Below, piece by piece: positions 8,924-50,324 of a stretch of 64,000 nucleotides of DNA (positions are counted from its first letter, which is position 1; every line of letters begins with the position of its first letter). The DNA is from Leucobacter komagatae (GTDB taxonomy: Bacteria > Actinomycetota > Actinomycetes > Actinomycetales > Microbacteriaceae), in the NCBI RefSeq assembly GCF_000834055.1, contig NZ_JXSQ01000004.1:1-64000 (forward strand), read 5' to 3'. The notes beneath the pieces are model-generated. The model saw only the letters and a program-made list of their open reading frames with translations, was not told the DNA's origin and did no database searches. Made by a program: the position numbers and the translations under genes.

Positions 8924-8956
8924 CGGGCCGGCTGCACCGAGCGGATTCGCCCTCCA

Positions 8957-10261: not shown

Positions 10262-10339
10262 CGTGTTCCTATTGTCTCACCTCCCGCGGCCTACCGCTCC
10301 CAGGTGCGAGCTCGCCGCCCGCACCCGGAAGCCGCCACG

Positions 10340-11128: not shown

Positions 11129-11140
11129 TAGATGTTCTCC

Positions 11141-12244: not shown

Positions 12245-12283
12245 GACACGCCTTTCGTAGAAGGGAAAACTGTTGTGTGGTGG

Positions 12284-13363: not shown

Positions 13364-13470
13364 TACGTGCTCCTCGTTGTGCGTGGAAATGATGGTTCAA
13401 GCATAGCCGTGGGGACTCTCTCGGGGCGCCGCGCCACAGCGGGTGGGCAACGAGCGGAGTCGGCTGGGCG

Positions 13471-13809
13471 CTAGATGCTGATGAGTGCGCTGGCGATCGC
13501 GAAGTTCAGCCACACGGCAACGACGCCGATGGCTGGGACGCCCCAGCCATCCTCTCCGCGTGCAAGACTGACGCCGCCCCAGATGGCGCAGACCACGCCG
13601 ATCGCGGCAGTCCCGATGGTGCCAACACCAAGGATGAGCGCCAATACCCACTGGGGGCGGGTGGAGTCGATTGCCCCGTAGCCGAGAAACAGTCCGAAGA
13701 AGCACGCGAGGACCGTCGCGACGATGAGCGCCGCGAGCGCGACGATGTATGCGGTGATCCGCACCCATGTGCGATTGGGTGCAGGATCGGTGGCAGTGTC
13801 TTCCGGCAT
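13471..13809 (-). CDS. small three-helix membrane protein, unknown function
   Basis: A 112-residue protein with a short acidic N terminus (MPEDTATDPAP) and three long hydrophobic segments. The middle and last are separated by a short loop, ARGEDGWG. I do not recognise the family; DUF4190-type actinobacterial membrane proteins have a similar look. ATG 13809 is chosen because TAGGCT lies 7 nt upstream with no ribosome site, a leaderless layout. It lies 107 nt upstream of leuB but has its own promoter. Confidence 0.65.
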   Translation of the reverse strand: MPEDTATDPAPNRTWVRITAYIVALAALIVATVLACFFGLFLGYGAIDSTRPQWVLALILGVGTIGTAAIGVVCAIWGGVSLARGEDGWGVPAIGVVAVWLNFAIASALISI

Positions 13810-13857
13810 GCGTGAAAGCCTAGTGGCCGGAGGCGCCTGATTTGCTTCGTGAAATGC

Positions 13858-13887
13858 AGAAAGCCTCACCCGAAGGTGAGGCTTTCT
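13858..13887. terminator. terminator with UUCG tetraloop after tRNA-Glu
   Basis: Perfect 13-bp stem (13858-13870 with 13875-13887). Read on the minus strand the loop is C-UUCG-G, an exceptionally stable tetraloop, immediately beyond the tRNA 3' end. Confidence 0.85.
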
Positions 13888-13893
13888 ATCCGG

Positions 13894-13966
13894 TGACCCT
13901 AGCGGGATTCGAACCCGCGTTACCGCCGTGAGAGGGCGGCGTACTAGGCCGCTATACGATAGGGCC
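13894..13966 (-). tRNA. tRNA-Glu (anticodon CUC)
   Basis: Read on the minus strand, the 73-nt gene begins GGCCCTA and ends TAGGGTC plus discriminator A, giving a 7-bp acceptor stem with one G-U pair. The anticodon stem is CCGCC/GGCGG with loop CTCTCAC, so the anticodon is CUC. The T arm is GCGGGTTCGAATCCCGC. CCA is not fully encoded (CC then G follows). Confidence 0.97.
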
Positions 13967-31913: not shown

Positions 31914-33299
31914 TCAGCGCTTGCTTCGTCGCTCCGGCACCACCTGCACCTGCCCGGTGAGCGCGCGTTCGCTTGCCTCAGCGCTTCGGGCGAAATCCGA
32001 TGGGCGCAGGAGCAAGAGCCCGATGATCGAGATCAGCGCGGTACCGACGAAGAAAATCACCGGCGACGAAATGTTGCCAGTTCCCGCGATGAGCGCCGTC
32101 GAGATCATGGGCGCGCTGCCACCGAAAATCGCCACTGGCAGGTTGTAGGAGACCGCGATCCCCGTTGACCTAATGTGCGTTGGCAGCAGCTCGGTCATCA
32201 CCGCGTATGGCGTCGACGAGTACAGCCCGAAGGTGAGCGCGACGGCGAGCAACGGCGCAATGAACGACGCCGGCGTCGCGTCTTGCGCGGCCATAAAGAA
32301 CCAAATCAGCGCGCCGGTCGCGAGGATCGACAGCACGAGCAAGAACGGCTTGCGCCCATATTTGTCGGTGAAGATGCCGCCGAACGGCATCACCACAGCG
32401 CCGAGCGTGCTCGCCACGAACACGTAGACCAGCGTCGTGCCCGAGTCGAACCCGAGCGTGTTCGACATGTACGTCGACGCGAAGGTGAGCAGCAGGTAGA
32501 ACATCGAAGCGAGCAGCGTGATGATCGCAGCAACGAGCGCGAGCGCACGCTTCCACGCGAAGACCTCGCGCAGTGGCGCCGCCGACGTCGTGCCGTGGCT
32601 CACGAGTTGCCGAAACTCGGGGCTGTCCTCGAGCTTCATCCTGATGTACAGCGCGATCAATCCGAGCGGCCCCGCGACGAGGAACGGGATTCGCCAGCCA
32701 CCGTCGTGCATGGCGTCTGGTCCGAGGAGGAAAATCATGCTGTTCGCAACGAGGCCGCCGAGCACCAGGCCGAGGACCGCGGTGGTCATCAGCCAACTCG
32801 TTGAGTACCCTCGCCGCCCAGGCCCGGCATACTCGGCGATGAAGCTCGTGACCGTGCCGATCTCCCCGCCAGCAGAGAACCCCTGCACGCATCGCACGAG
32901 CACGAGCAGCGCGGGAGCGACCCAGCCGACGCTGGCTGTTGTTGGGAGCAGCCCGATCGCGAACGTCGCCCCGGCCATGAGGAGCAACACGATCATGAGG
33001 GTGCGTTTGCGCCCGATCTTGTCCGCGAGCGGCCCAAAGAACAGGCCACCAAGCGGGCGCACGAAGAAGCTCAGTGCGAATACCGCGAAGCTACTAATGA
33101 GACTTACAGCTGGGTTGTCGCTCGCAAAGAACGCCTGCCCAATGTAGATCGCGAGAAAACCGTACACGCCGTAGTCGTACCACTCGATGAGGTGGCCGAC
33201 AATCGCACCGAAAAACGCCTTGCGGCGCCCCCTGCTTGGGCCGCCAGCACCGGGGCCTGTGGGGTGCGCAGTTGCCGTGTGGTCGGGCATCGTTGCCAT
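31914..33299 (-). CDS. MHS-family MFS transporter (copy 1)
   Basis: A 461-residue metabolite:H+ symporter of the MHS family (ProP/KgtP/ShiA group), which imports carboxylates and betaines. Family marks are the start-proximal GHLIEWYDYGVYGFLA, the loop 2-3 motif GPLADKIGRKRT, the VRCVQGFSAGGEIGT block and GIFTDKYGRKPF. The C-terminal tail is charged. It is one of three close paralogues here; all three have the same length when intact. ATG 33299 is used; the frame continues upstream in arginine-rich sequence. It diverges from an enoyl-CoA-hydratase/CoA-ligase pair, suggesting import of a carboxylate that is then activated and processed. Confidence 0.9.
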   Translation of the reverse strand: MATMPDHTATAHPTGPGAGGPSRGRRKAFFGAIVGHLIEWYDYGVYGFLAIYIGQAFFASDNPAVSLISSFAVFALSFFVRPLGGLFFGPLADKIGRKRTLMIVLLLMAGATFAIGLLPTTASVGWVAPALLVLVRCVQGFSAGGEIGTVTSFIAEYAGPGRRGYSTSWLMTTAVLGLVLGGLVANSMIFLLGPDAMHDGGWRIPFLVAGPLGLIALYIRMKLEDSPEFRQLVSHGTTSAAPLREVFAWKRALALVAAIITLLASMFYLLLTFASTYMSNTLGFDSGTTLVYVFVASTLGAVVMPFGGIFTDKYGRKPFLLVLSILATGALIWFFMAAQDATPASFIAPLLAVALTFGLYSSTPYAVMTELLPTHIRSTGIAVSYNLPVAIFGGSAPMISTALIAGTGNISSPVIFFVGTALISIIGLLLLRPSDFARSAEASERALTGQVQVVPERRSKR

Positions 33300-33721
33300 G
33301 GACTTCGCCTGCTTTCTGTTGGGTGTGTGGACGATCCGGGCGCAGCGCGCACGTCTCCCCCGCGCCACGCGGGGCGCGGGCGCGGGATGCTGGGGTTGCC
33401 AGCGTGCGGTCGCGGGCGCTCGACTCTGAGCACCCCTGCCGAGCGCGTCCGCTGGAAGCGGGGAGATTCCCCTGCGGGGCACGGCTGTGGTCGACCAAGA
33501 CAACACGGTTGCATGCGGCCCACTGGGCCACCTCTTCATCACCTGTTTACAACCTGTTGACTTGCTTCACTATAAGCAGGAACGATTACACACGCAACCG
33601 TTGTGCTCAAAAGCGACTTTTGCCTTGACCGTTGGCGCCCAACCGTGCCACCATGCAGATGAGCGCAGAGCATTCGCGCCAGCCGCAGTGCCGCGGCAAG
33701 CCCACCCCTGGAGGATCCTCA
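33300..33721. other. divergent intergenic region, MHS copy 1 and crotonase
   Basis: No gene is supported in these 422 nt. The right half is AT-richer and promoter-like: TATAAG at about 33572 and repeated ACCTGTT words near 33540-33555. An exact inverted repeat CAAAAG-CGA-CTTTTG occurs at 33608-33622. The last shares CAAAAGCG with the elements upstream of the XRE fusion gene and MHS copy 3. Confidence 0.5.
33608..33622. promoter_or_regulatory. inverted repeat, candidate operator
   Basis: CAAAAG and CTTTTG flank a CGA spacer about 100 nt upstream of the crotonase start. It is perfectly symmetric and sits in the only AT-rich part of the gap. Confidence 0.4.
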
Positions 33722-37612: not shown

Positions 37613-38443
37613 TCACGGGAGCTGGCCGGAGCTGCGGGCGAGGGCGACGCACTCGACGCGGTTGTGCGCGCCAAACTTTCGCATCGCCGCGCGCAGGTAG
37701 CTCTTCACGGTCTCAAGTTCAAGGTTGAGGCGTTCGCCGATCTCGCGGTTACTCAGCCCCAGGGCGACGAGCGCGAGCACGTCAACCTCACGCGCGGACA
37801 GCACGGGGCTGTCGCCGTGCACCTCGGGGGTGAGCTTCGCAAGAATCGCCTGCAGTTCGGCCTGCGCCGTCGGGTCGTCCATGCTGCGGGCGAACTCACG
37901 CAAATCCGCAAACGCGACGCGCACCTGTTCCCACTCACGATCCGTCGGCGCTGATCTCACTGACCGAAGATACTCAGCGGTCTCAACTGCCTGGGTCTGC
38001 TTCGTGACCGCGTCGTCGACTGCGACACGAAACGCGATCGCACCTGCAGCTTGACTGACGCTCTTCACCTCAGCCTCAGTGAAGGATCCAGCATGCCTCC
38101 GCGCCCCATAGACGATGCCGCGCGCCTCACCGTCGATCACGATCGGGAGTGCCGCGACCGACCGAAGATCCTCCGCGGCGACCGCGCGGTCGTAGTCGCG
38201 GGAGATTGACGTGTCGTGTAGGTAGTCGGGCGCAACGGCCGGAATCGCGTGCGCGAAGGCGAGACCTCCGAGGCCCGCTCCCCTGCGAATCACGAGCCCG
38301 TTGAGGGCTGTGGTGCGCACACCGACCGTGTGCGTGATTGTGAAGCGATCCGCATCCGGCGCGGTGTAGCCGCCGAAGAGCACATCAAGGCGCGTGGTCT
38401 CCTGCGCCCCACTGAGCGCACCAGCGATCCCGGAGCCCTTCAC
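37613..38443 (-). CDS. GAF-LuxR transcriptional regulator
   Basis: A 276-residue regulator. Residues 20-150 resemble a GAF sensory domain (AALPIVIDGEARGIVYG, then a SFTEAEVKSVSQAAGAIAF helix). A LuxR-type helix-turn-helix forms the C terminus (LSAREVDVLALVALGLSNRE, then LNLELETVKSYLRAAMRKF). GTG 38443 overlaps the stop of a 20-codon upstream frame as GTGA and has no ribosome site of its own. It lies between an acyl-CoA dehydrogenase and a fatty-acyl-CoA ligase gene on the same strand, so control of acyl-CoA catabolism is plausible. Confidence 0.85.
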   Translation of the reverse strand: MKGSGIAGALSGAQETTRLDVLFGGYTAPDADRFTITHTVGVRTTALNGLVIRRGAGLGGLAFAHAIPAVAPDYLHDTSISRDYDRAVAAEDLRSVAALPIVIDGEARGIVYGARRHAGSFTEAEVKSVSQAAGAIAFRVAVDDAVTKQTQAVETAEYLRSVRSAPTDREWEQVRVAFADLREFARSMDDPTAQAELQAILAKLTPEVHGDSPVLSAREVDVLALVALGLSNREIGERLNLELETVKSYLRAAMRKFGAHNRVECVALARSSGQLP

Positions 38444-38619: not shown

Positions 38620-40224
38620 TCACCGGGAGTCCAACATTGCCATCGAAAGTTCGCGCATCTCGACCTTGCGGACCTTTCCGGTGATGGTCATCGGGAACGA
38701 ATCAGCGACGTGCACGTACTTCGGGATCTTGAAGTGCGCGAGCTTTCCCGTCGCGAATTCCCTGAGCGCTTCTGCGGTCAGGGAGTCCGCCCCGGGCCGC
38801 AACATCACCCACGCCATGAGCTCCTCTCCGAACCGATCGTCAGGTACGCCAATCACCTGCACGTCAGCGATGTCGGGGTGCCGGTAGAAGAACTCCTCGA
38901 TCTCGCGAGGGTAGATGTTCTCACCGCCGCGAATCACGACGTCCTTGAGCCTGCCGACGACGGTCAGCCTGCCCTCACTGTCCATCGTGGCGATGTCGCC
39001 CGTGTGGATCCACCTGCCGGCATCGATCGTTTCCGCCGTCTGCTCACTATTGCCCCAGTAGCCAAGCATCACTGAGTAGCCGCGCGTGCACAGCTCCCCC
39101 GGCTCGCCGACGGGAACCACCTGACCGTGCTCGTCGATGATCTTCACTTCGAGGTGTGGCATCACCCGCCCAATGGTTTGCGTGCGGGCCGCGATGCCGT
39201 CGGTTGTCGAGGTCATCGTCGACACCGGCGACGTCTCCGTCATGCCGTAACAGATCGCCACCTCACTCATGTGCATCTCAGCAATGACCTCCTCCATGAC
39301 CTCGACGGGGCAGGTGGAGCCGGCCATGATGCCGGTGCGCAGCGTGTCGAGATTGAAGCTCGAGAAATTGTCCAGTGCGAGCTCCGCGATGAACATCGTC
39401 GGCACGCCATACAGGGAGGTGCAGCGCTCCTGATCGACGGCCGCGAGTGTCTTTGCCGGGTCAAACACCGGAGCAGGGAGCACGATGCACGAACCGTGGC
39501 TGTGCGCGCCAAGGATGCCCATGACCATGCCGAAGCAGTGATAGAGCGGGACGGGAAGGCACACGCGATCCGCCGCCGTATACCCGAGCCCCTCACCGAC
39601 GAAGAAGCCGTTGTTCAGAATGTTGTGGTGCGTGAGTGTTGCGCCCTTCGGGAAGCCCGTGGTGCCCGAGGTGTACTGGATGTTGATTGCTTCGTCGAAA
39701 GTGAGAGGAGGCACCTCCATATTCGGCGGGTTGCTCGCCGCATCGGCGATCGCCGCATCCCACCCCTCCGAACCGATGAACAACACATCAGAGAACCCGA
39801 TCTCAGCGAGCATGCCGGCGTAGTCGCTCGTGCGGTACTCCACGGCGCTCACCATGAGCGAGATGCCCGACTGCTCAACCACATAGCGCAGCTCGTGGGT
39901 GCGATAGGCGGGGTTTACGTTTACGAGGATCGCCCCAAGCTTCGCCGTCGCGTACTGCGTAAACACCCACTCCGCACAGTTAGGCGACCAGATGCCCACC
40001 CTGTCGCCCTTTTTCACCCCGCGTTTCGTGAGCGCAGCCGCGAGCAACTCGCTCTCGTTTCGCAGCTCGGAAAACGTCCACCGTCTGCCAGTGAAGGCTT
40101 CGACGAGTGCTTCTTTGTCTGGGTACTGCTCCGTGATCTCATCGAGCATCTCGCCGAGGGTTTGCCCCTTCAGCGGTGTCGTGCTCGGTCCCGACGCGTA
40201 CGATATCTGTGCTCCATTGCCCAT
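38620..40224 (-). CDS. fatty-acyl-CoA ligase, AMP-binding family
   Basis: A 534-residue adenylate-forming ligase of the FadD type. The A3 loop is YTSGTTGFPKGATLTHH, A5 is YGMTETSP, A7 is HTGDIATMD, the hinge GRLKDVVIRGGENIYPREIE, and the A10 lysine is in FPMTITGKVRKVEM. All catalytic residues are in place. Its length and PLYHCFGMVMG block fit medium/long-chain enzymes. ATG 40224 is preferred; upstream in-frame sequence is basic and of low complexity. On the same strand, downstream, lie the LuxR regulator and an acyl-CoA dehydrogenase, consistent with a beta-oxidation group. Confidence 0.92.
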   Translation of the reverse strand: MGNGAQISYASGPSTTPLKGQTLGEMLDEITEQYPDKEALVEAFTGRRWTFSELRNESELLAAALTKRGVKKGDRVGIWSPNCAEWVFTQYATAKLGAILVNVNPAYRTHELRYVVEQSGISLMVSAVEYRTSDYAGMLAEIGFSDVLFIGSEGWDAAIADAASNPPNMEVPPLTFDEAINIQYTSGTTGFPKGATLTHHNILNNGFFVGEGLGYTAADRVCLPVPLYHCFGMVMGILGAHSHGSCIVLPAPVFDPAKTLAAVDQERCTSLYGVPTMFIAELALDNFSSFNLDTLRTGIMAGSTCPVEVMEEVIAEMHMSEVAICYGMTETSPVSTMTSTTDGIAARTQTIGRVMPHLEVKIIDEHGQVVPVGEPGELCTRGYSVMLGYWGNSEQTAETIDAGRWIHTGDIATMDSEGRLTVVGRLKDVVIRGGENIYPREIEEFFYRHPDIADVQVIGVPDDRFGEELMAWVMLRPGADSLTAEALREFATGKLAHFKIPKYVHVADSFPMTITGKVRKVEMRELSMAMLDSR

Positions 40225-40400
40225 AACCTCATGATCCTTGGGCCGCGAGCGGGCGGATACCCCCTTTCGCGGGTGAGTTTTGGCGGGCCCTAATCGAGTA
40301 GCGGGATCGCGCAACATCGCGGCCTGCGTCCCCCGGCAGGCAGCCGCGCTAGTTGGCTTCCGGGGCCGGCGTGAGTTCGCCCTAGCATCCGAAGTCTGAC

Positions 40401-40804
40401 TCAGACTCGCACAAGCACATCGGCCTCGTACGAACATTGAGGCTTATCGCTGTTCCAGTGAATCGTGCCGGGCAAGCGCTGAATCATCTCAGCATTCTCG
40501 TCTTCGGTCTAGAGAACCAACAGGAAATCTGCAGGAGTGCCTTTCCACTGACAGCTCACCTCCGCGCTTGGTGACAGGTCTCCGCCTTCTACTTCTCTGG
40601 AGACGTACCCTCCGGAAAGGTTCCCACCCGATCCCAAGCCACCGTCGTCAACGAGCTCAGGGGAATCAGCGCATCAGGTTCGCACACCGCATCAAACCGC
40701 TCGATGAACGCGTCTTTCGAGACGACCGGGGGCCGGTCTTGCGCGGGCCTCGGCAGGCACCCGACCCGCCCCAGGGCGAGCGCGACGACAGCAAAGCTTG
40801 CCAC
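40401..40804 (-). pseudogene. broken lipoprotein-like gene
   Basis: From GTG 40804 the frame reads a hydrophobic stretch with a cysteine (ALALGRVGC) followed by PLSSLTTVAWDRVGTFPEGT, a pattern I associate with small secreted lipoproteins of unknown function. It then stops early. One base shift at about 40618 restores a continuation (EVEGGDLSPSAEVSCQWKG), and after an in-frame TAG the same frame continues TEDENAEMIQRLPGTIHWNS to a stop at 40401. At least one frameshift and one nonsense codon are needed, so the gene is inactive. It lies directly behind a DUF6973-like fragment on the same strand. Confidence 0.6.
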
Positions 40805-40827
40805 GTATTAACTGGGCGAACGAAGTC

Positions 40828-41151
40828 TCACGAAGCTGTGATCCTGGACAATCCCGCGGGATCCTTTCCCGGAAGCGCCTTTGCGTCTTCGTCGACACCA
40901 TATGCGGCGCCGATAGCAACCCGGTCTGACCTATCGAGAGACTTGCCGTCTGGTGCGATTTCACGCCCGCCCTCATGGTTATACAGGCCCAAGGCCTCGC
41001 GGGCACCGGGGTTCCTAGAGACTCCCGCGTGTGCATTAGTGAAATCTCTGGCCCAGTCATGACCGATATTTCGCCCGGATTGAGTCCTGGCTTCTTGCGG
41101 CGTCTCTGCGCGGATCGCCGCACGTGCGAGCGCGAGGCGATCCGCAACGCG
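40828..41151 (-). pseudogene. C-terminal fragment of a DUF6973-like protein
   Basis: A 107-codon open stretch without a start codon encodes a convincing protein segment: NIGHDWARDFTNAHAGVSRN, then PGAREALGLYNHEGGREIA, then LDRSDRVAIGAAYGVDEDA. The run of DFTNAHAG, NP, LYNHEGGR resembles DUF6973 (FTxAHE...NP...MDLYNNxxGR), a domain common in polymorphic-toxin-like and secreted proteins. The 5' part is gone; an in-frame TGA precedes it 5 nt before the end of the MHS copy 2 gene. It is therefore a remnant left beside the transporter. Confidence 0.55.
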
Positions 41152-41155
41152 TCAG

Positions 41156-42531
41156 CTACTTCGACCTAGCTACCTGTTCCTGTCCGCTGAGCGCACGTTC
41201 GCTCGCTTCCGAGGATCGGTCGAAATCAGACTGGCGGAGCACGAGAAGACCGATGATCGACAACAGCGCAGTCCCCAGAAAGAAGATGAGTGGAGCACTG
41301 ATATTTCCGGTCGCAGCGATGAGCGCCGTAGCGATCATCGGTGCGCTACCGCCGAACACCGCTACCGGCAGGTTGTATGCCACCGCAATTCCTGTGGAAC
41401 GGATATGCGTCGGGAGTAGCTCCGTCATCACCGCATACGGCGTGGAGGAGTACAGGCCAAAGAACAGCGCGACCGCAAGCAGCGGCGCGATGAACGTCGC
41501 AGGGTTGGCATCCCTGGCGGCGAGGAACATCCAAACGAGCGCCCCGGCGGCGAGCACGGCCATGACGAGCAGGAAAGGTTTTCGCCCGTATCGGTCGGTG
41601 AACATCCCCCCAAAGGGCATTACGACCGCTCCAAGTGTGCTCGCCACGAACACGAACAGGAGCGTCGTTCCCGAATCGAACTCAAGGGTGTTCGACATGT
41701 ACGTCGAGGCGAAGGTGAGCACCAAATAGAACATGGATGCGAGGAGTGTGATGATGCAAAACACCAGCCCCATGGCCCGCTTCCAGCGCATCGCTTCACG
41801 TAGTGGCGCCTTCGAGGTCGTGCCGTGCGACAGGAGCTTTCGAAATTCGGGGCTGTCCTCAAGCTTCATCCTGATGTACAGCGCGATAAGTCCGAGCGGG
41901 CCAGCAATCAAGAACGGAATGCGCCAGCCCCCGTTCAGCATCGTTTCGTCTCCAAGCAGGTAGATGAGGCCGTTGGAGACCAAACCACCAAGCACCAAAC
42001 CGCCGACAGCAGTGGCCATAAGCCAACTCGTCGAGTACCCGCGTCGCCCGGGCCCGGCGTACTCGGCAATGAAACTCGTGACCGTGCCGATTTCACCGCC
42101 GGCGGAGAACCCTTGGACGCACCTAATGAGCACGAGCAGTGCCGGTGCGACCCAACCGACGAGTTCTTCAGTGGGCAAGACACCTATTGCAAAGGTCGCA
42201 CCCGCCATAAGCAACAACACGATGAGGAGCGTGCGCTTGCGCCCAACGCGGTCCGCGAGCGGCCCGAAAAACAGGCCCCCCCAGTGGCCGAACAAAAAAG
42301 CTCAGAAGCAAATACCGCGAAGCTGCTGAGCAAGCTCACCGCCGGGTTCTCACTGGCGAAGAACAGCTGGCCGATATAGATAGCAAGGAACCCATACACA
42401 CCGTAGTCGTACCATTCGATCAGGTGCCCGGTAATAGCGCCGAGGAACGCTCGACGCCGGCCCAGCAGTTCCTCTCGTGTTGCGGTGTCGCTCATGGATG
42501 ATTCGGTTGAATGTGGGGTGTTATCCACCAT
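41156..42531 (-). pseudogene. MHS-family transporter (copy 2), frameshifted
   Basis: The second of three MHS transporter genes. The N-terminal part (ITGHLIEWYDYGVYGFLA) is normal to SSFAVFA near 42310. There the frame changes, and the remainder (GGLFFGPLADRVGRKRT onward) continues in another frame to the stop at 41156. Against the two intact copies, the break region 42280-42330 is about 2 nt longer and contains runs of seven C and six A, so several small indels occurred or were miscalled. The rest is otherwise full length. AAGGA lies upstream of ATG 42531. It is 60 nt downstream of the XRE fusion gene on the same strand. Confidence 0.85.
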
Positions 42532-42591
42532 GTTGTCCGATCCTTTCGCCTGAGTGAGTGTGAACGGGGTGGCGCTCGAGATTCGCCGCCG

Positions 42592-44403
42592 CTACCCCCG
42601 ACCGATGCTCGCGTCCAACCCTCGGGACGCCTGTGTCTTCGCTGATTTCAGCGTGTCCGCACGCCGGCGAGGCATATCCGTGATGCGGTGCCAGGCACGC
42701 GGCCGAGCTGCTGGTGCGAGGTGTTCTTCAGCCCACCTGGTGAGAAACACCCTGTCCAACCGGCCGGCACGGTTCGCCGGGGCGACAAACGCGACCGGCA
42801 CCTGTTGCAGGGTCGGATGTGACCTCCCGACGACCACCACCTCGAGCACTCCGGGTGCTTGAGCGATGATCGCTGCGACCTCTACTACGTTCACTCGGTC
42901 ACGGCCGACGTGAATGACCTCATTGACTCGCCCCGCGACGTGGAGCGTGCCGTCACGTCCGATCCTCCCGACGTCTCCGGTCAACAACCACTGCTGGCCG
43001 TTGATGATGACAAATCGTTCGGCAGTGGCGTGAGGCTCGTTGAGGTATCCGGTGAAGAGGTCAACGCCAGCCGTTCCTTGCACAGCAAAAAGCCCTTCCG
43101 CTTCCACACCCATGGGCTGGCGCGTACGTGGATTGAGCACTGCCACTTCTCGACCGGGCACCGGCACAGCGACAACACTTTGCCGCGGTTTTTGCGAGAG
43201 GTCGGCTGCCATCGGAACGACGCTTTCGAGCGAGCCGTGGATCACTCTCGGTTGCACGCCGACGAGCCTTGTGAATTCGGCATAGTGGTTGGGCCCGAGC
43301 TTTCCGGTGAACCAGACGTGCTGGAGTCGCACACGCTCAGCCGGTGCCGCTGACTTGGCGAGGATGAGGCGGATCGATGTTGCCGAGAGGCAGGCATGGG
43401 TTGCCGCGAACTCAGTCGCCTGACTCACCCATTCCCAAGCGCTCAATCTCCGAGTGAGTACGACACTTGCCCCAACCGCGATCGCAGGGGCAATACACGA
43501 CGCCAACGGGTGTCCACGGAAGAGCGGTTCTGTTACAAGCCACCGATGCTGCGACTCCAGCCATACGACATCAGACATGGCAAACGCGCTGGAGACGTAG
43601 TTCGCCTGTGTGAGTTCGATGCCGCGCGCCTCTGCGCTCAAAGCCGACGAGAACACCAGGGTGAGCCGCTGGTTTGGCTTTGTCCTTTCGACACGTGGAG
43701 AGCTGCCATAGCTTGCGAGCGGAGCTCCAACGGCGATATCCGCAGCCGTCTCCGTTACTGGTATCGCTTGGAAGTCAAGCCCATCGATCGCCGCCTCGTA
43801 GGCGTCAGCCCGGGACTCTGCGTAGATTCCGACGCTTGCACCGGTGCGCCGAATCTGTGCTGAGAGCTCGTGGGGCTCGGAATGGGGATCCCCCAGCACG
43901 ATCCACGCCCCCAGCCGCGCAGCAGCGAGCCACAGGGCGACAACGACTGGCGAATTCTCGAGGGCAACGTGCACGGCCGAGTCCGGACGAACACCAGCTG
44001 CGGCGAGCGCGCCGGCGATCCTGCGGACAGCATCATCGAACGCAGCGTACGTCCACTCCGCAGTCTCGTCGTCTTCATCACGGAACACGAGGAAACGGCG
44101 AGGGCCGTGAGCCATGACTGCGGCCTGCCACAGCGCGTGGAACGTTGGAGTAGCCGAGCGTGCGAGTGCGTCTTTCGAGTCCGGACGGTTCTGCAGGAGA
44201 TCCGCCAGCGGCACGTCTAGCGCGTTCGCAATTCTTCCGAGCGTCACAATGCGTGGCGAGACGCGTCCGGCTTCAATCTGAATGATGGTCTTGCGGTGTA
44301 CGCCCGCGGAATCTGCAAGCTCATCGATGGTCAATGCGAGGCCTCTGCGCAGTCGAGCAACCGCTACGCCGAGCGAAATGAGATCCGCGTCTAGGGTGAC
44401 CAT
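42592..44403 (-). CDS. XRE-HTH fused to a degenerate acyl-CoA-ligase (ANL) domain
   Basis: A 603-residue two-domain protein. Residues 8-70 form an XRE/Cro-type helix-turn-helix (VAVARLRRGLALTIDELADS, then AGVHRKTIIQIEAG). Residues 80-590 follow the adenylate-forming ligase fold, from WTYAAFDDAVRRIAGAL to LLTGDVGRIGRDGTLHVAGR. Catalytic motifs are eroded. The A3 loop is FSSALSAEARG instead of TSGTTGxPKG, the A5 YGxTE is HGSLE, and the A10 lysine position in PRRRADTLK holds Thr. ATP-dependent ligation is thus doubtful, while ligand binding may remain. It is co-directional with MHS copy 2. A carboxylate- or acyl-adenylate-sensing repressor is my inference. ATG 44403 is chosen over an upstream start. 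Confidence 0.8.
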   Translation of the reverse strand: MVTLDADLISLGVAVARLRRGLALTIDELADSAGVHRKTIIQIEAGRVSPRIVTLGRIANALDVPLADLLQNRPDSKDALARSATPTFHALWQAAVMAHGPRRFLVFRDEDDETAEWTYAAFDDAVRRIAGALAAAGVRPDSAVHVALENSPVVVALWLAAARLGAWIVLGDPHSEPHELSAQIRRTGASVGIYAESRADAYEAAIDGLDFQAIPVTETAADIAVGAPLASYGSSPRVERTKPNQRLTLVFSSALSAEARGIELTQANYVSSAFAMSDVVWLESQHRWLVTEPLFRGHPLASCIAPAIAVGASVVLTRRLSAWEWVSQATEFAATHACLSATSIRLILAKSAAPAERVRLQHVWFTGKLGPNHYAEFTRLVGVQPRVIHGSLESVVPMAADLSQKPRQSVVAVPVPGREVAVLNPRTRQPMGVEAEGLFAVQGTAGVDLFTGYLNEPHATAERFVIINGQQWLLTGDVGRIGRDGTLHVAGRVNEVIHVGRDRVNVVEVAAIIAQAPGVLEVVVVGRSHPTLQQVPVAFVAPANRAGRLDRVFLTRWAEEHLAPAARPRAWHRITDMPRRRADTLKSAKTQASRGLDASIGRG

Positions 44404-44435
44404 TCCCCTACGATGCCCTACGGCACCGACATGCA

Positions 44436-44453
44436 CAGTAGCGTAAAAGCGCC
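44436..44453 (-). promoter_or_regulatory. 18-nt element upstream of the XRE-ANL gene
   Basis: CAGTAGCGTAAAAGCGCC here differs by one base from 50283-50300, upstream of MHS copy 3. Read on the minus strand it contains TACTGT, a possible -10, and a GCGCTTTTACGC near-palindrome, a fit for an XRE operator. Confidence 0.5.
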
Positions 44454-44633
44454 GAAGTGCAGCGACCCCGTTCGAGCTCGCTCAAGCCACCAGTGATCGG
44501 GATCTGAATCGCCGAGCCATGACCTGAGTCGCACGAGCTGCGGCGACGAATTGGCCACACTGTTGCCGGCTACAAGGCTTGGTCCCTCGGATGACGCAGT
44601 CATGTCCGGCCCTCTCGCTGGTAGCTTGGGACC

Positions 44634-44954
44634 ATGCAAGACGAGAATATTCGCGATACTCTTCGAAGCTTTGTCGCCGAACGCGAGTGGGATCAATTCC
44701 ACACGCAAGCAAATCTTGCCAAGAGCGTGAGCATCGAGGCAGCTGAGCTACTCGAGTGTTTCCAGTGGTCTGATAACGCCGAAGTGGAGCGTGTTGAGGA
44801 AGAACTCGCGGACGTCCTCACATACGCGTTCCTACTCGCTGACAAACTCGGCACAACGCCTGAAGCGTTGATCCGCAAGAAGCTGGCAACCACGATCAGT
44901 AAGTACCCCGCCGAACTAGCCAGAGGTCGCAGTACCAAATACGACAGGCTCTGA
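44634..44954 (+). CDS. MazG-like nucleotide pyrophosphohydrolase
   Basis: A 106-residue all-alpha NTP pyrophosphatase of the MazG superfamily, which hydrolyses (deoxy)nucleoside triphosphates to monophosphates. The metal-binding pattern is present: E35, E38 and E41 in IEAAELLECFQW, and E57/D60 in EEELADVLTYAFLLAD. It has the length of single-domain dCTPase-like members. TAGCTT lies 6 nt before ATG 44634, so the mRNA is probably leaderless. It precedes the GIY-YIG/DUF2075 gene by 86 nt on the same strand, and the two probably form one module. Confidence 0.88.
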   Translation: MQDENIRDTLRSFVAEREWDQFHTQANLAKSVSIEAAELLECFQWSDNAEVERVEEELADVLTYAFLLADKLGTTPEALIRKKLATTISKYPAELARGRSTKYDRL

Positions 44955-45040
44955 ACCGAGCCTCTCGTATCTCTTCACAGGCGAGTCGAGAAGCAAGCAT
45001 CACCGATTCACCACCGTGCCAAGCTGATGGAGTAACAACA

Positions 45041-46774
45041 ATGGCGAACTTCGAGATCGTGAGTTTCCCGTTCACTTCGGGCGGGTTCCCCCGGGACTCG
45101 GTTGCGCTCAACGACTGGCCCGTCGTATATGTGCTCACCGGGAAGCGTCACGCATACGTTGGCGAATCGCACAGAGCGATGAGCCGTATGGCGCAGCACT
45201 TTCAAATTCAAGACCGTCGAGAGAAGCTTCGGGTTGCTCGTGTGATCATCGACACGGAATTCAACAAGTCCGCCTGCCATGACCTTGAAGCGTTTCTCAT
45301 TAAGTACATAGACGGTGACGAACAATTCACCCTTCTGAACTTGAACGCTGGCCAGACAAGTTACAACTATTTCAATCGGGATCATTACCGCTCATCCCAC
45401 GAGGCAATTTTTGAGGCGCTCCAGCAAGCGGGGCTATTCAGCGGATCAATCCGAGAGATTGAAAACTCCGACCTCTTCAAGTTTTCTCCGTATAAGCAGC
45501 TGACCGATGTCCAAACGGCCACGGTCGCCAATGTCGCCGAAGGCCTCCTCGCAGACCTTGGTGCGGGGAAGCCGTCGCTCTCCGTCATTGAGGGAGCTCC
45601 GGGGACGGGCAAGACCGTGGTGGTCATCACCCTCATGAAACTGCTCAGAGACATCCAGTCCGTGGTGGAAGGCGGCGAAGTCCTCGAAGAAGACATCGAT
45701 GGGCCATATGGAGATCTTTTTCTTTCGGGTTTTCGGGAAGCGCTCGCGCATCGACGCATAGGTTTCGTCGTACCCCAGCAGGCCTTGCGCAAGACGCTCG
45801 CTGGGGTGTTTCGACGAAGCCCAGCGTTACGAGGAGTGGAAATCCTGACACCGTGGGACGTTGGGAAGTCCGATGCACGCTGGGACCTACTTATCGTCGA
45901 TGAAGCTCACCGGCTAAGCCAGTACGCTGCCCAATCCTTCGGCGGACTAGTCGCGGATTTCCGCGACATCACGACACGGCTGTTCGGAGCGTTTGACCCA
46001 GATTTGACCCAGCTCGACTGGATCCGCAAACAAAGCGACCATCAGATCGTCATCATCGACGGTGGCCAGTCGGTACTGCCAGCAGACTTGCCGTCGGCCT
46101 CGATAGCTCAACTCAGTGCAGAAGCCGCCACGGCATCTCGACGGTACCGCCTCGAATCACAACTGAGAGTTCTCGCCGGCGGCGATTACGTAGAGTACAT
46201 CCGCGACGCGGTGAGTGGAGTACTCGAGCACCCCCGCGAGTTTGAAGGATACGACCTTCGTTTCTACGACGACCCCTCGACAATGCACGCCGCGATCCGA
46301 CAACAAAATGAGAAGCTTGGGCTGTCGCGGATGCTGGCAGGCTTCGCTTGGCCGCATCTAAGCAAGCGAGCAACGGACTCCCACATCGACGACATCACGA
46401 TCGGTGATTTCAGCATTCAGTGGAACCGAAAAATGAAGGACTGGGTCAACTCCTCGGACTCGATAAACGAGGCCGGGTCGATCTACACCATTCAGGGCTA
46501 CGACCTGAATGTGGCTGGGGTCATCATCGGCCCTGACCTCACGTACCGCGACGGCAAGGTCCTTTTGGACTCAGCAAACTATTTCGATCCTCGAGGCAAC
46601 CAACGTAACAACAACCTACGAAAGATCACGTACACGGACGCTGACATCCAAAGGTTTGTCGAGAACATCTACACCGTGCTACTCACTCGAGGCATTCGGG
46701 GAACATACATCCACGTGGTTGACCCAGCGCTTCGGGAGTACCTCCGGCCTTTCTTCCCTCCTGCCAACGTATAG
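45041..46774 (+). CDS. GIY-YIG nuclease fused to DUF2075 (SLFN-g3-type) helicase
   Basis: A 577-residue fusion. Residues 28-92 form a GIY-YIG nuclease-type domain: VVYVLTG, AYVGES, basic SRMAQHF, and E83 in DLEAFLIKY as the metal ligand. From residue 150 follows a P-loop helicase domain of the DUF2075/Schlafen group 3 family with Walker A EGAPGTGKT (184-192) and Walker B LLIVDEAHR (283-291). Later motifs include SQLRVLAGGDYVEYI and IYTIQGYDLNVAGVIIGPD. Codon use is less GC-biased than in the flanks. GGAG lies 8 nt before ATG 45041. A nucleic-acid-processing or defence role with the MazG-like enzyme is inferred. Confidence 0.88.
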   Translation: MANFEIVSFPFTSGGFPRDSVALNDWPVVYVLTGKRHAYVGESHRAMSRMAQHFQIQDRREKLRVARVIIDTEFNKSACHDLEAFLIKYIDGDEQFTLLNLNAGQTSYNYFNRDHYRSSHEAIFEALQQAGLFSGSIREIENSDLFKFSPYKQLTDVQTATVANVAEGLLADLGAGKPSLSVIEGAPGTGKTVVVITLMKLLRDIQSVVEGGEVLEEDIDGPYGDLFLSGFREALAHRRIGFVVPQQALRKTLAGVFRRSPALRGVEILTPWDVGKSDARWDLLIVDEAHRLSQYAAQSFGGLVADFRDITTRLFGAFDPDLTQLDWIRKQSDHQIVIIDGGQSVLPADLPSASIAQLSAEAATASRRYRLESQLRVLAGGDYVEYIRDAVSGVLEHPREFEGYDLRFYDDPSTMHAAIRQQNEKLGLSRMLAGFAWPHLSKRATDSHIDDITIGDFSIQWNRKMKDWVNSSDSINEAGSIYTIQGYDLNVAGVIIGPDLTYRDGKVLLDSANYFDPRGNQRNNNLRKITYTDADIQRFVENIYTVLLTRGIRGTYIHVVDPALREYLRPFFPPANV

Positions 46775-46825: not shown

Positions 46826-48772
46826 TTAACCCCCATCCTCTCTGAAACGCGCGAACCATCGGAGCGCGTCGGGTTGATCGGTGACTTCGAGGGCACCGAG
46901 CGCTTCGAGATCCGCACCGAGGAGCAGCCGTTTGACCGGCACCTCCATGCGCTTCCCAGTGCGCGTGCGCGGCACTGCGGGAGCAACGATGACGTCGTCG
47001 GGCACGTAGTGCTTCGAGGCGTGCGCACCAATGGCACGGACGATGGAGCCGGGTGAGCGCGCCGCGTCCCACTGCTCCGATGGGACGACGAAGAGCGGCA
47101 TCCAGTACCCACCATCGGGCAGGTCTATTCCAACGACGATCGAGTCGCGGACGTCGGGCAGCACATCGACAGCTTCGTAAATCTCCGCGCTGCCGATGCG
47201 AATGCCTCGCCGGTTGAGAGTCGCGTCGGATCGCCCGTGGATGATCACGGTGCCACGCGAGGTCACCGTGATCCAGTCTCCCTGGCGCCAGACGCCTGGG
47301 AATGCCGAGTAGTACGTCTCCAAGTACCGAGACCCTGTGTCGTCTCCCCAGAGCTGAACCGGCATCGACGGCATCGGCCGCGTGATGATCATTTCACCCT
47401 CAGTGTCCGTGATGGACTCCCCTCCCTCGCTCCAGGCTTCAAGCGCGACACCAAGGGCGGGGGCTGATATCTCGCCGTCCCACACAGGGGTAATCGGGTT
47501 GCCGCACACAAACGCTCCCACTATGTCTGTCCCTCCACTGGTGGAGAACACCGGCATTCGCGGACCGAATTGTGAGCGCACCCACTCGTTTGCTTCAGAC
47601 GGCAATGGCGATCCTGTGCTCGCAATTTGTCGTAGCGCTCCGCACCGGGGCAGTTCCAGGCCACCGCCGCCGGTTGCGAGGAGGTGCGCTGGGCTCGTGC
47701 CGAAGAGCCTTACACGGTGCCGATCTACGACTTCCCAAAGCCTCGCCGTGTCTGGGTAAAGCGGATCGCCGACGTAGAGGACAATGGTCGCTCCGAGTAG
47801 CAGCCCCGACACCTGGATGTTCCACATCACCCAGTTGGGCGTCGTGTACCAGAAGAACACTTCGCCAGGCCCCAAGTCGAAGTGCAGCCCCAACGATTTG
47901 AGTTGCTCAACGACGACGCCACCATGCCCGTGCACGATGCCCTTCGGTTTGCCTGTAGTGCCGGAGGTGAAGAGCACCCACAACGGGTGGTCGAACGCAA
48001 CAGGTACGGGAACGAAGTCTCCCGCACCTCCGGCGGCGAGCGCGTCTCCCCACTCGACGGCATCGAGTACTTCGTAATTGGTGCCGAGCGTCGGAACCAC
48101 GATTGTGTGTTCGACACTTGCAAGGCGCGAGCGCAGCTGCGCGCATTCAGCATTGCGATCAAAGACCTTTCCCCTGAAGGCGTACCCAGTGCCGACAATG
48201 AGTACCTTCGCCTCGAGCTGCCCGAGCCGGTTGGCGGCAGCCACGGCGCTGTAGTCCATCCCTGCCTGCGACCAGACGGCGCCCAGACTAGCTGCCGCGA
48301 ATAGCGAAACCACGCCCTCGTAACAGTTGGGAAGGTAACCGACTACACGATCGCCTTTCTCAACCCCGGCTCCCCGCAGGTATCGTGCGAGGGCACCGAC
48401 ATCGCTTCGGAGTTCGCGGTATGTGTGGCTCGTCACACGGCCCGCCTCGGTTTCAACGATGACCGCCGCGGCGGCATCTTCGCCATAGTTCAATCGATCC
48501 GCGTAGTTGAGTGTTGCTCCGGGGAACCACTCGGCACGGTGCATGGTCTCACCATGGATCACGGCGGCTGGTTCCGAAGCGAAGGTGACCTCGAAATACT
48601 CGACAACAGCACCCCAGAATTCCTCGAGATGATCGACCGACCATTCTTGTAGGGCGTGATAGTCCCCCCTCGCAGAGATACTCAGACCTCGGTTCGCCAC
48701 GAGCCACCTCGTGAAATCCATTAACCGAGACGCTTCGGTGTCGGCCTTGTTAGGGGCCCATTGCGGGCGCAT
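46826..48772 (-). CDS. acetoacetate-CoA ligase
   Basis: A 648-residue acetoacetyl-CoA synthetase-type ligase, which activates acetoacetate or a related short 3-oxo acid with ATP and CoA. The N-terminal WSVDHLEEFW and WFPGATLNYADRL are typical of the ACS/AACS group. The A3 loop is FTSGTTGKPKGIVHGHGG, A5 is STSGGTD, and the A10 lysine is in PRTRTGKRMEVPVKRL. The ATG at 48772 overlaps the stop of the MHS copy 3 gene as TAATG, so the transporter and ligase are translationally coupled. That pairing suggests uptake plus activation of one carboxylate. Confidence 0.92.
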   Translation of the reverse strand: MRPQWAPNKADTEASRLMDFTRWLVANRGLSISARGDYHALQEWSVDHLEEFWGAVVEYFEVTFASEPAAVIHGETMHRAEWFPGATLNYADRLNYGEDAAAAVIVETEAGRVTSHTYRELRSDVGALARYLRGAGVEKGDRVVGYLPNCYEGVVSLFAAASLGAVWSQAGMDYSAVAAANRLGQLEAKVLIVGTGYAFRGKVFDRNAECAQLRSRLASVEHTIVVPTLGTNYEVLDAVEWGDALAAGGAGDFVPVPVAFDHPLWVLFTSGTTGKPKGIVHGHGGVVVEQLKSLGLHFDLGPGEVFFWYTTPNWVMWNIQVSGLLLGATIVLYVGDPLYPDTARLWEVVDRHRVRLFGTSPAHLLATGGGGLELPRCGALRQIASTGSPLPSEANEWVRSQFGPRMPVFSTSGGTDIVGAFVCGNPITPVWDGEISAPALGVALEAWSEGGESITDTEGEMIITRPMPSMPVQLWGDDTGSRYLETYYSAFPGVWRQGDWITVTSRGTVIIHGRSDATLNRRGIRIGSAEIYEAVDVLPDVRDSIVVGIDLPDGGYWMPLFVVPSEQWDAARSPGSIVRAIGAHASKHYVPDDVIVAPAVPRTRTGKRMEVPVKRLLLGADLEALGALEVTDQPDALRWFARFREDGG

Positions 48773-50157
48773 TATGCTTCTCCCTCGGTCGGGACGGGGC
48801 CGGTGAGCACACGTTCGCTCTCCTTCGCACTCCGCTCGAAGTCAGAGTTCCGAAGCAGGGCAAGACCCGCCGCCGCGACAACGGCAGTTCCTGCGAAGAA
48901 GTACATTGGCGACGTAATATCTCCGGTTGCTGCGATCAGCGCGGTCGCAATCATCGGGGCGGTTCCTCCGAAAAGTGCAATGGGAAGGTTAAACGCGATG
49001 GCGATTCCGGTCGAGCGGATATGGGTTGGCAAAAGGTCAGTCATGAGTGCGAATGTAGACGACACGTAGCAGCCGAACAGCAACGCAATGGCGAGGATCG
49101 GTCCAATGAACGTGGCCGGTGTCGCCCCCTCTGCGGCTAGGAAGAACCAAAGAAATGCGCCAATACTCAAGATCGCAACGGTAAGCATGAAAGGCTTCCT
49201 TCCGAACCGGTCCGTGATCATTCCCCCGAAGGGCATGACAGCGGCGGCCAGCGTGCCTGATCCGAACACGAAGAGCAGCACAGTCCCCGATTCAAACTCG
49301 AGCGTGTTCGACATGAACGTTGACGAGAACGTGAGTAACAGGTAGAACGCCGATGCGTGCAGCGCGATGGCGGCGAACACGAGCGCGAGCGCCCGTTTCC
49401 ACTGCATCACCTCACGCAACGGGACTTTCGAGGTTGTACCGCGAGCGACAAGCTGGAGAAATTCCGGAGTGTCTTCAAGCTTCATCCTGATGTAGAGGGC
49501 TATCAAGCCGAGTGGGCCCGCCACCAAGAACGGGATTCGCCACCCACCGTTCTGCATTGCCTCGGAGCCCATGAGGAAGATCAGTCCGTTCGACACGAGT
49601 CCACCGAGGATGAGGCCCATCACCCCGGTGACCATCAGCCAGCTCGTGGAGAGACCGCGTCGCTTCGGCCCGGAGTACTCGGCGATAAATGCGGCTACAG
49701 TGCCCACCTCCCCTCCCGCAGAAAACCCTTGGAGGCAGCGTACGAGCACCAGTAGCAGCGGGGCCAACCAGCCGATGCTTTCGCTGGTCGGAAGAATTCC
49801 AATGGCGAACGTCGATCCCGCCATCAGGATGAGCACGAGCAGTAGCGAGCGTTTGCGCCCGAACCGATCCGAGAAGGGACCAAAGAAAAGGCCGCCCAGT
49901 GGGCGCACGAAGAAGCTCAGTGCGAATACGGCGAAACTGCTGATGAGGTTCACAACCGGGCTTTCGCTGGCGAAGAATGCTTGCCCGATAAACACCGCTA
50001 CGAAACCGTAAACTCCGTAGTCGTACCATTCGATAAGGTGACCGGTGACAGCTCCAAGAAAGGCGCGACGTTTGGCCCGTTGTTTAGGGCCGTTGTTTTT
50101 CGCTGAAGTTGCGGCCTGCGGATCCAGATGCAGTTCGTCGGAATTCATGACTCTCAT
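48772..50157 (-). CDS. MHS-family MFS transporter (copy 3)
   Basis: A 461-residue MHS-type proton symporter, intact. It shares the family marks GHLIEWYDYGVYGF, GPFSDRFGRKRS, VRCLQGFSAGGEVGT and GGMITDRFGRKPF with copies 1 and 2, in the same order. Its gene is the first of a two-gene unit with the acetoacetate-CoA ligase, with which it overlaps by one base. Acetoacetate, 3-hydroxybutyrate or a similar short carboxylate is a reasonable substrate guess from this coupling. ATG 50157 is used; a second ATG three codons in has GAGAG before it and is nearly as likely. Confidence 0.9.
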   Translation of the reverse strand: MRVMNSDELHLDPQAATSAKNNGPKQRAKRRAFLGAVTGHLIEWYDYGVYGFVAVFIGQAFFASESPVVNLISSFAVFALSFFVRPLGGLFFGPFSDRFGRKRSLLLVLILMAGSTFAIGILPTSESIGWLAPLLLVLVRCLQGFSAGGEVGTVAAFIAEYSGPKRRGLSTSWLMVTGVMGLILGGLVSNGLIFLMGSEAMQNGGWRIPFLVAGPLGLIALYIRMKLEDTPEFLQLVARGTTSKVPLREVMQWKRALALVFAAIALHASAFYLLLTFSSTFMSNTLEFESGTVLLFVFGSGTLAAAVMPFGGMITDRFGRKPFMLTVAILSIGAFLWFFLAAEGATPATFIGPILAIALLFGCYVSSTFALMTDLLPTHIRSTGIAIAFNLPIALFGGTAPMIATALIAATGDITSPMYFFAGTAVVAAAGLALLRNSDFERSAKESERVLTGPVPTEGEA

Positions 50158-50324
50158 TTCTGTGGTGAATGGAACATTTCAAACCGGCCGACCTAGCGCC
50201 ACTCGTGCACGGAAACTCACTGTTGGCGAGCCACCGTCTCCGGCTGCCATGCCCCAACCATGCACCAGGCTGGAGGCGTTCGCAGTAGCGCAAAAGCGCC
50301 TATGTAGTGTGCTGACATCCGCCG
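50158..50324. other. MHS copy 3 upstream region
   Basis: This first part of a 500-nt gap between divergent genes holds no gene. It contains the 18-nt element at 50283-50300 and is moderately AT-richer than its surroundings. Confidence 0.5.
50283..50300 (-). promoter_or_regulatory. 18-nt element upstream of MHS copy 3
   Basis: CAGTAGCGCAAAAGCGCC, one base different from the element at 44436-44453. The central GCGC-AAAA-GCGC is an inverted repeat. It lies about 126 nt upstream of the transporter start, in the same orientation as in front of the XRE-ANL gene. Confidence 0.5.

What the first reader, a model, noticed from the sequence alone, without database searches (positions are those of the whole stretch)
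42592..44403. XRE helix-turn-helix fused to a catalytically eroded acyl-CoA-ligase fold
One polypeptide joins a Cro/XRE DNA-binding domain to a full ANL-fold domain. The glycine-rich A3 loop has lost its glycines and lysine (FSSALSAEARG), the A5 Tyr/Thr are changed (HGSLE), and the A10 lysine position holds threonine. Losing ATP chemistry while keeping the fold suggests that the enzyme domain became a ligand sensor for a carboxylate, acyl-CoA or acyl-adenylate. It sits beside MHS carboxylate transporters and CoA ligases that could make or consume such a ligand.
Basis: partly seen in the sequence, partly recalled or inferred. Interest (0 to 1): 0.75.

Follow-up and report, generated by a model that had tools for sequence, protein, structure and literature searches.

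The report
DNA-binding regulator made from dead enzyme
One bacterium carries a protein that joins a DNA-binding head to an acyl-CoA ligase that has lost the residues needed for its chemistry, and a matching DNA site lies before its own gene and before a transporter operon, so an enzyme seems to have been turned into a gene switch.

Summary
ORF 42592-44403 (-), 603 aa, is an XRE helix-turn-helix fused in frame to a complete ANL domain. All 54 distinct homologues examined keep A3, A5, A8 and A10; none has a significant HTH match in its frame. The protein branches among intact enzymes, end branch 2.51 against a median of 0.23. Loss is concentrated in catalytic motifs (36 of 53 near-invariant columns, against 14 of 80 elsewhere): fold kept, chemistry dropped. 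In 11 of 36 loci the intact enzyme is followed by the MHS transporter type that follows this gene. A 20-mer upstream of the gene recurs at 18 of 20 bases before a second MHS/acetoacetate-CoA ligase operon. Best reading: a self-regulating one-component sensor, like GabR in logic but with an ANL fold. It is a singleton so far; DNA binding and ligand are untested, and the adjacent MHS gene is frameshifted as assembled.

The parts
42592..44403 (-). XRE-ANL fusion gene, 603 aa (P0001)
44197..44355 (-). XRE/HTH_3 domain, residues 17-69
   Evidence: Pfam 41.2 bits; nearest solved relative C.BclI, E 1.3e-5
43042..44118 (-). ANL N-terminal (AMP-binding) domain, residues 96-454
   Evidence: Pfam 127.4 bits; fold matches 4CL, benzoate-CoA ligase and others
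42661..42882 (-). ANL C-terminal domain, residues 508-581
   Evidence: Pfam 45 bits
43618..43659 (-). eroded A3 loop, residues 249-262 (FSSALSAEARG against FTSGTT..PKG)
   Evidence: residues 254-257 have pLDDT under 50
43492..43533 (-). eroded A4, residues 291-304
43222..43248 (-). eroded A5, residues 386-394 (HGSLE against YGMTE)
42874..42939 (-). eroded A8, residues 489-510
42646..42675 (-). eroded A10, residues 577-586 (Lys to Thr)
44436..44455 (+). candidate operator 1, 33-52 bp upstream of the fusion gene's ATG
50283..50302 (+). candidate operator 2, 126-145 bp upstream of the MHS2 ATG, 18 of 20 identical, dyad core GCGC-AAAA-GCGC
41156..42495 (-). MHS transporter 1, 96 bp downstream of the fusion gene; frame broken twice within a short stretch as assembled
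48772..50157 (-). MHS transporter 2, start of the second operon
46826..48772 (-). acetoacetate-CoA ligase, downstream of MHS2 (overlaps it by 1 base)
   Evidence: NCBIfam TIGR01217, 657.4 bits against cut-off 520.9
38620..40437 (-). CoA ligase gene of fatty-acid type downstream of MHS1

Best explanation
The gene encodes a one-component transcriptional regulator made from a CoA ligase. An ancestral, catalytically active ANL enzyme encoded just upstream of an MHS carboxylate transporter gained an N-terminal XRE DNA-binding domain and lost its ATP, CoA and lysine chemistry, while the fold was kept. The XRE head binds a short dyad (core GCGC-AAAA-GCGC) that lies just upstream of its own gene and upstream of the MHS2/acetoacetate-CoA ligase operon. 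Ligand binding in the old active-site cleft, or the swing of the C-terminal subdomain, changes DNA binding. It would thus set carboxylate uptake and activation and its own level. Shown by computation: fusion, predicted fold, loss of motifs, descent from the enzyme clade that is often MHS-linked, the two shared sites. Inferred: DNA binding to those sites, repression rather than activation, ligand sensing, identity of the ligand.
For: HTH above the Pfam cut-off. ANL fold: most of it at pLDDT over 90, VIA-align Z 45.4 over 477 residues to feruloyl-CoA synthetase 8wev. A3, A5, A8 and A10 intact in 54 of 54 distinct homologues, lost here. Loss biased to catalytic motifs, 36 of 53 against 14 of 80, Fisher p 5e-9. 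Neutral drift to 120 changed residues (a lower bound) gave on average 3.2-4.7 stops, with no stop in 3, 11 and 13 of 400 runs at equilibrium GC 0.5, 0.62 and 0.7; at 240 changes 6.3-10.1 stops and no stop in 0, 0 and 2 of 400. Placed among intact enzymes, in a group of 18 with Cryobacterium (95/91), end branch 2.51 against median 0.23. ANL-then-MHS order in 11 of 36 loci, the MHS 63% or more identical to that of C. luteum, whose own locus is one of the 11. Shared 20-mer, 18 of 20; best of 400 shuffles 17 of 20; no match at up to 3 mismatches in 100 shuffles of the window; the two sites are the only ones at 0-1 mismatch of the 16-base core in the 3.67 Mb genome; flanks unrelated.
Against: Found in one genome only, so neither the fusion nor the eroded state is shown to be conserved. 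The adjacent MHS1 gene is out of frame as assembled, which fits a decaying cassette or sequencing error. Genome-wide rarity of the site is weak evidence by itself: the reversed control pattern has 1 hit at up to 1 mismatch in the own genome (the pattern has 2), and 13 in 53 congeners (the pattern has 3); the 16-base version at up to 3 mismatches is found twice or more in 7 of 100 window shuffles, and 15 of 16 is reached by 3 of 400 upstream shuffles. No copy lies in the 96-bp gap before MHS1. Site 2 is 126 bp from the MHS2 start, in a stretch shared with a divergent, apparently ABC-type gene, so its target could be either. GC3 of the gene (0.67) is below that of most window genes measured, though close to its neighbours'. 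The HTH was modelled poorly. The motif boundaries of the Fisher test were set by me after seeing the alignment.
Confidence: 0.55

Rival explanations
1. Decaying gene: an HTH-fused CoA ligase that recently lost use and is drifting, its reading frame open by luck; the frameshifted MHS1 next door is part of the same decay.
For: End branch about ten times the median; MHS1 frame broken twice; GC3 0.67, below most window genes measured; no second fusion among the 58 homologue loci examined; the no-stop outcome still occurs in 3 to 13 of 400 neutral runs at the lower bound of change.
Against: No stop in 603 codons although neutral drift to 120-240 changes gives on average 3.9-7.5 stops at equilibrium GC 0.62; loss concentrated in catalytic motifs while 66 of 80 other near-invariant columns are kept; HTH well over cut-off; the downstream part of MHS1 is still 83% identical to MHS3.
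Confidence: 0.2
2. Regulator whose ANL remnant is only a dimerisation or partner-binding module (for example binding an active CoA ligase), not a small-molecule sensor.
For: Both the nucleotide motifs and the 320-346 region, which I take to be the acyl pocket, are altered; other CoA ligase genes lie close by.
Against: A7 Asp477, A8 Arg492 and A5 Glu393 are kept, residues of the nucleotide/hinge region (roles recalled), so part of the cleft may still be used.
Confidence: 0.18
3. Bifunctional BirA-like enzyme-regulator that still activates some acid by an altered active site.
For: BirA shows that an HTH-ligase fusion can do both (recalled); TGD and GR motifs kept.
Against: A3 G254/K260, A4 His/Asn, A5 Tyr/Thr, A8 Lys/Gly and A10 Lys are all replaced, each 47 of 47 in the aligned homologues.
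Confidence: 0.07

Closest known systems
Class I adenylate-forming CoA ligases of Actinomycetota, often MHS-linked (this protein's own clade; e.g. Cryobacterium luteum L034, Rhodococcus opacus PD630 WP_005249480.1)
   Same: About 33-48% identity over the ANL domain for the examined loci other than L059 and L060 (29-31%); same gene order with an MHS transporter in 11 of 36 loci
   Different: The 54 distinct ones examined have no HTH in their frame and keep A3, A5, A8 and A10
MocR/GabR regulators
   Same: N-terminal DNA-binding domain plus a whole enzyme fold serving as ligand sensor, controlling uptake/catabolism genes (abstract starts in the listing: PMC6917764, PMC8739950)
   Different: GntR winged helix and PLP aminotransferase fold there; XRE and ANL fold here
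BirA biotin protein ligase/repressor (recalled)
   Same: HTH fused to an adenylate-forming ligase, regulator of its own pathway
   Different: Unrelated ligase fold, catalysis retained
XRE-family one-component regulators with a C-terminal sensor (an XRE-cupin-like ORF in the same genome, L161:1445-2038, recognised by eye)
   Same: Same type of DNA-binding head
   Different: Sensor there looks like a cupin, not an ANL enzyme

Membership tests
XRE/Cro-type HTH regulators | HTH_3 domain over curated cut-off | tested here: met
   41.2 bits against 23; solved XRE relatives from E 1.3e-5
XRE/Cro-type HTH regulators | binds a specific DNA operator | not testable with these tools
   only a candidate site, present twice in the genome at 0-1 mismatch
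ANL superfamily (fold and descent) | AMP-binding plus AMP-binding_C domains, ANL fold | tested here: met
Acyl-CoA ligase (enzyme) | A3 P-loop, A5 Y/T, A8 K/G, A10 Lys | tested here: not met
   all replaced here; all four motifs present in 54 of 54 distinct homologues
MocR/GabR | GntR winged HTH | tested here: not met
   the HTH families over cut-off are HTH_3, HTH_31 and HTH_19
MocR/GabR | fold type I aminotransferase domain | tested here: not met
   the sensor part is ANL
BirA-like enzyme-repressor | retained ligase catalytic residues | tested here: not met
   (for ANL chemistry)

The most novel reading that the evidence does not exclude
A catalytically dead ANL (acyl-CoA ligase) domain serves as the sensor of a one-component transcription factor: a sensor class for which my limited literature searches found no description, caught in a single lineage after an enzyme-transporter cassette's own ligase was turned into its regulator.
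Probability: 0.45. Interest if true: 0.75.

Novelty: new variant of a known kind. Interest (0 to 1): 0.6.

Why it matters
Regulators built from whole enzymes (GabR, BirA) are few and, as far as I recall, old, so their origin is hard to watch. Here the ancestor enzyme clade, its gene neighbourhood, the gain of the DNA-binding head, the loss of each catalytic motif and a candidate operator can be placed, with a living intact enzyme at 48% identity. If the binding is real, the ANL fold, which belongs to a very large enzyme superfamily, becomes a natural scaffold for carboxylate or acyl-CoA biosensors.

Tried and rejected
Other XRE-ANL fusions: none found in the genome search draws from genus (54 genomes), family (398), order (396), class (394), relatives (299), phylum (396) and the genus of G089 (3), which overlap and used cut-offs of E 1e-40 to 1e-60, so a more diverged fusion could be missed. 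Plasmids at E 1e-30 gave 6 records; the 4 that I fetched (H1, H2, H3, H5) have no HTH in frame; H4 and H6 were not fetched. Viral contigs gave none. It gave 79 loci, of which I examined 28 (L034-L061); the other 51 (L062-L112, 19-25% identity) were not looked at for HTH or motifs. No exhaustive absence of fusions is claimed. The HTH check of the 58 examined frames gave 16 rows, all with E 1.4 or worse.

Own-genome paralogues: the next best (L002, 27%) has no HTH in its frame; the remaining ANL hits were not studied. A 548-codon frame with an HTH hit (C17, L126) carries other sequence after the HTH, by eye not ANL.

XRE origin: an HTH hit in a 104-codon frame of the same genome (C34, 41% over residues 5-84) was fetched (L114) but not followed. 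Structure of the HTH alone: the single-sequence prediction gave a poor model (long helices; the other four models at pLDDT 45-53), not used. The promoter scan found no sigma-70-like site in 40000-45200. The inverted-repeat search with arms of 7 or more did not report the element; its dyad is short and was read by eye. The 2-mismatch copy of the core on C10 lies inside a 243-aa ORF and was set aside as chance; the one-mismatch copies in three congeners (L158-L160) have no match to the seven window proteins tested.

Dropped rows: of the 58 homologue loci 4 identical proteins were merged (54 distinct); the tree used 50 rows including P0001; the near-invariant table used 47 homologues, without the distant L059 and L060 and without L121-L125, found later. 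Of the 36 loci, L036 has only 24 and L113 only 1715 bases downstream. In one search the MazG-like ORF was given one base off, so its GC row is void.

Literature: searches returned no paper; one search returned one (DarR, c-di-AMP, unrelated); one search returned 16, 10 listed (listing only seen), none on an HTH-ANL fusion as far as titles and abstract starts show; (MocR/GabR) returned 16, 6 listed, listing only seen. No paper was opened. The library lacks most subscription journals, so this is weak evidence of absence.

Full report
What is there. Window 42592-44403, minus strand, encodes 603 aa from ATG 44403. Pfam places HTH_3 at residues 17-69, AMP-binding at 96-454 and AMP-binding_C at 508-581, all over their curated cut-offs. 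Between residues 2 and 96 there is no ATG; the other common start codons before the ANL part are TTG 24, GTG 53 and GTG 64, inside the HTH, so the two parts read as one polypeptide. AlphaFold2 with 22 aligned rows gives mean pLDDT 83, over 90 for most of the ANL part; residues 254-257 (A3 loop) and 578-583 (A10) are under 50. Foldseek and VIA-align match 4-coumarate, benzoate, feruloyl and 4-chlorobenzoate CoA ligases. The HTH came out as five short helices of low confidence (block means 41-68), and a single-sequence job for it gave a poor model; its identity rests on the profile match and on solved XRE relatives.

Erosion. Homologues came from whole genomes, plasmids and the species collection. 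I examined 58 loci, 54 distinct proteins: 54 of 54 have the A3 pattern, the A5 YG.TE, the A7 [ST]GD, the A8 K..G.N and the A10 P.T..GK; of these five the window protein has A7 alone. None of the 58 frames has an HTH upstream of the enzyme (best E 1.4). Aligned with 47 of them, K260, H296, N298, Y389, T392, K498, G501, N503, G583 and K584 are each 47 of 47 and each replaced here; G390, E393, G476, D477, G491 and R492 are kept. Among columns at least 95% constant, 36 of 53 in motifs are changed and 14 of 80 elsewhere (odds ratio 10, p 5e-9); 7 of those 14 lie at 320-346, which I take from general knowledge of the fold to be the acyl-pocket region. The motif limits were chosen by me after seeing the alignment. 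In a leave-one-out count P0001 breaks 41 of 93 otherwise fully invariant columns, and no other row breaks more than 8.

Descent. A maximum-likelihood tree of 50 rows puts P0001 inside the intact enzymes, in a group of 18 (support 95/91) as one of three unresolved lines, the others being three Cryobacterium-type enzymes and 14 from other Actinomycetota; its end branch is 2.51 against a median of 0.23. Long branches make the place unsure. The nearest by identity is Cryobacterium luteum, 48%. In 11 of 36 loci the intact enzyme gene is followed on the same strand within 3 kb by an MHS transporter 63% or more identical to that of C. luteum, C. luteum itself being one of the 11; in the two named Cryobacterium loci a GAF/PucR-type regulator and a thiolase belong to the same cluster. 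In the window the fusion gene is likewise followed, after 96 bp, by an MHS gene whose downstream part is 65% identical to that of C. luteum. So the regulator probably arose, in place, from the ligase of an enzyme-transporter cassette.

Is the protein still under selection? There are no close relatives to compare, so I used a null model. At 292 columns where the three Cryobacterium-type enzymes agree with the majority, P0001 differs at 120. Random mutation of the C. luteum gene until 120 residues had changed gave on average 4.7, 3.9 and 3.2 stops at equilibrium GC 0.5, 0.62 and 0.7, with no stop in 3, 11 and 13 of 400 runs; 240 changes gave 10.1, 7.5 and 6.3, with no stop in 0, 0 and 2 of 400. 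Insertions and deletions were not modelled. With the motif bias this favours a protein whose fold is kept, but it does not exclude a short recent period of neglect. Against it stands MHS1: as assembled its frame is broken twice within a short stretch. Its downstream part is still 83% identical to MHS3 (31914-33542) and 65% to C. luteum, so any decay is recent, or the breaks are sequencing errors.

A candidate operator. Comparing the upstream region of the fusion gene with seven other upstream or gap regions of the neighbourhood, one match stands out: CAGTAGCGTAAAAGCGCCGA at 44436-44455 and CAGTAGCGCAAAAGCGCCTA at 50283-50302. The best of 400 dinucleotide shuffles reaches 17 of 20, none 18; for the 16-base version 3 of 400 reach 15 of 16. 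In 100 shuffles of the window the 20-mer never occurs at up to 3 mismatches, while two or more matches of the 16-mer at up to 3 mismatches occur in 7. Flanks are not alike. In the whole genome the 16-base core has two copies at 0-1 mismatch, these two; the other 30 places need 2 or 3, no more than the reversed-pattern control gives (32 matches in all against 42). Among 53 congeners none has an exact copy and 3 have one mismatch, without the tested window genes beside them. The reversed control at the same setting has 1 hit in the own genome and 13 in the 53 congeners, so rarity alone proves little; the weight lies in the length of the match and in both copies lying in upstream regions of this one neighbourhood. 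The second copy contains GCGC-AAAA-GCGC, a perfect dyad; the first differs in one base. Site 1 is 33-52 bp before the ATG of the fusion gene, site 2 is 126-145 bp before MHS2, which heads an operon with an acetoacetate-CoA ligase. That is what an autoregulated XRE protein controlling a carboxylate uptake operon would look like. It remains a sequence inference; site 2 also lies before a divergent gene that by eye is of ABC type.

Mechanism. Most likely the protein binds these dyads as a dimer and the ANL remnant, still able to close its C-terminal subdomain, passes on ligand binding. Retained Asp477, Arg492 and Glu393 would allow some adenylate or nucleotide contact; the loss of the phosphate loop and of the A8 and A10 lysines removes the chemistry (roles of these residues recalled). 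The altered pocket region argues that the ligand is not simply the old substrate. Short carboxylates handled by the MHS and acetoacetate-CoA ligase genes, or their CoA esters, are the first candidates. All of this paragraph is inference.

Novelty. Enzyme folds turned into sensors of one-component regulators are known from MocR/GabR (abstract starts in the listing) and, with catalysis kept, BirA (recalled). I found no account of an ANL domain in this role (an open-access library only). Hence a new variant of a known kind, a singleton so far.

Noticed in passing
window 42255-42330: MHS transporter 1 (41156-42495) has its reading frame broken twice within a short stretch, one break at a G run; pseudogene or assembly error.
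   Followed up: partly
window 31914-33542, 41156-42495, 48772-50157: Three related MHS transporter genes (69-83% identical to each other) within about 18 kb, each near CoA ligase genes.
   Followed up: partly
window 44634-46774: A MazG-like gene followed by a Schlafen group 3 helicase gene (PF09848) sits between the two MHS cassettes; the PADLOC matches to the helicase are weak.
   Followed up: no
L034 and L058, about 7980-13960: The intact enzyme in Cryobacterium lies with a GAF/PucR-type regulator and a thiolase (plus MHS in L034), an apparent carboxylate catabolic cassette with parts of it recurring in other Actinomycetota.
   Followed up: partly
window 37613-38443: GAF-LuxR regulator gene between the acyl-CoA dehydrogenase and CoA ligase genes, a second possible regulator of the cluster.
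   Followed up: no
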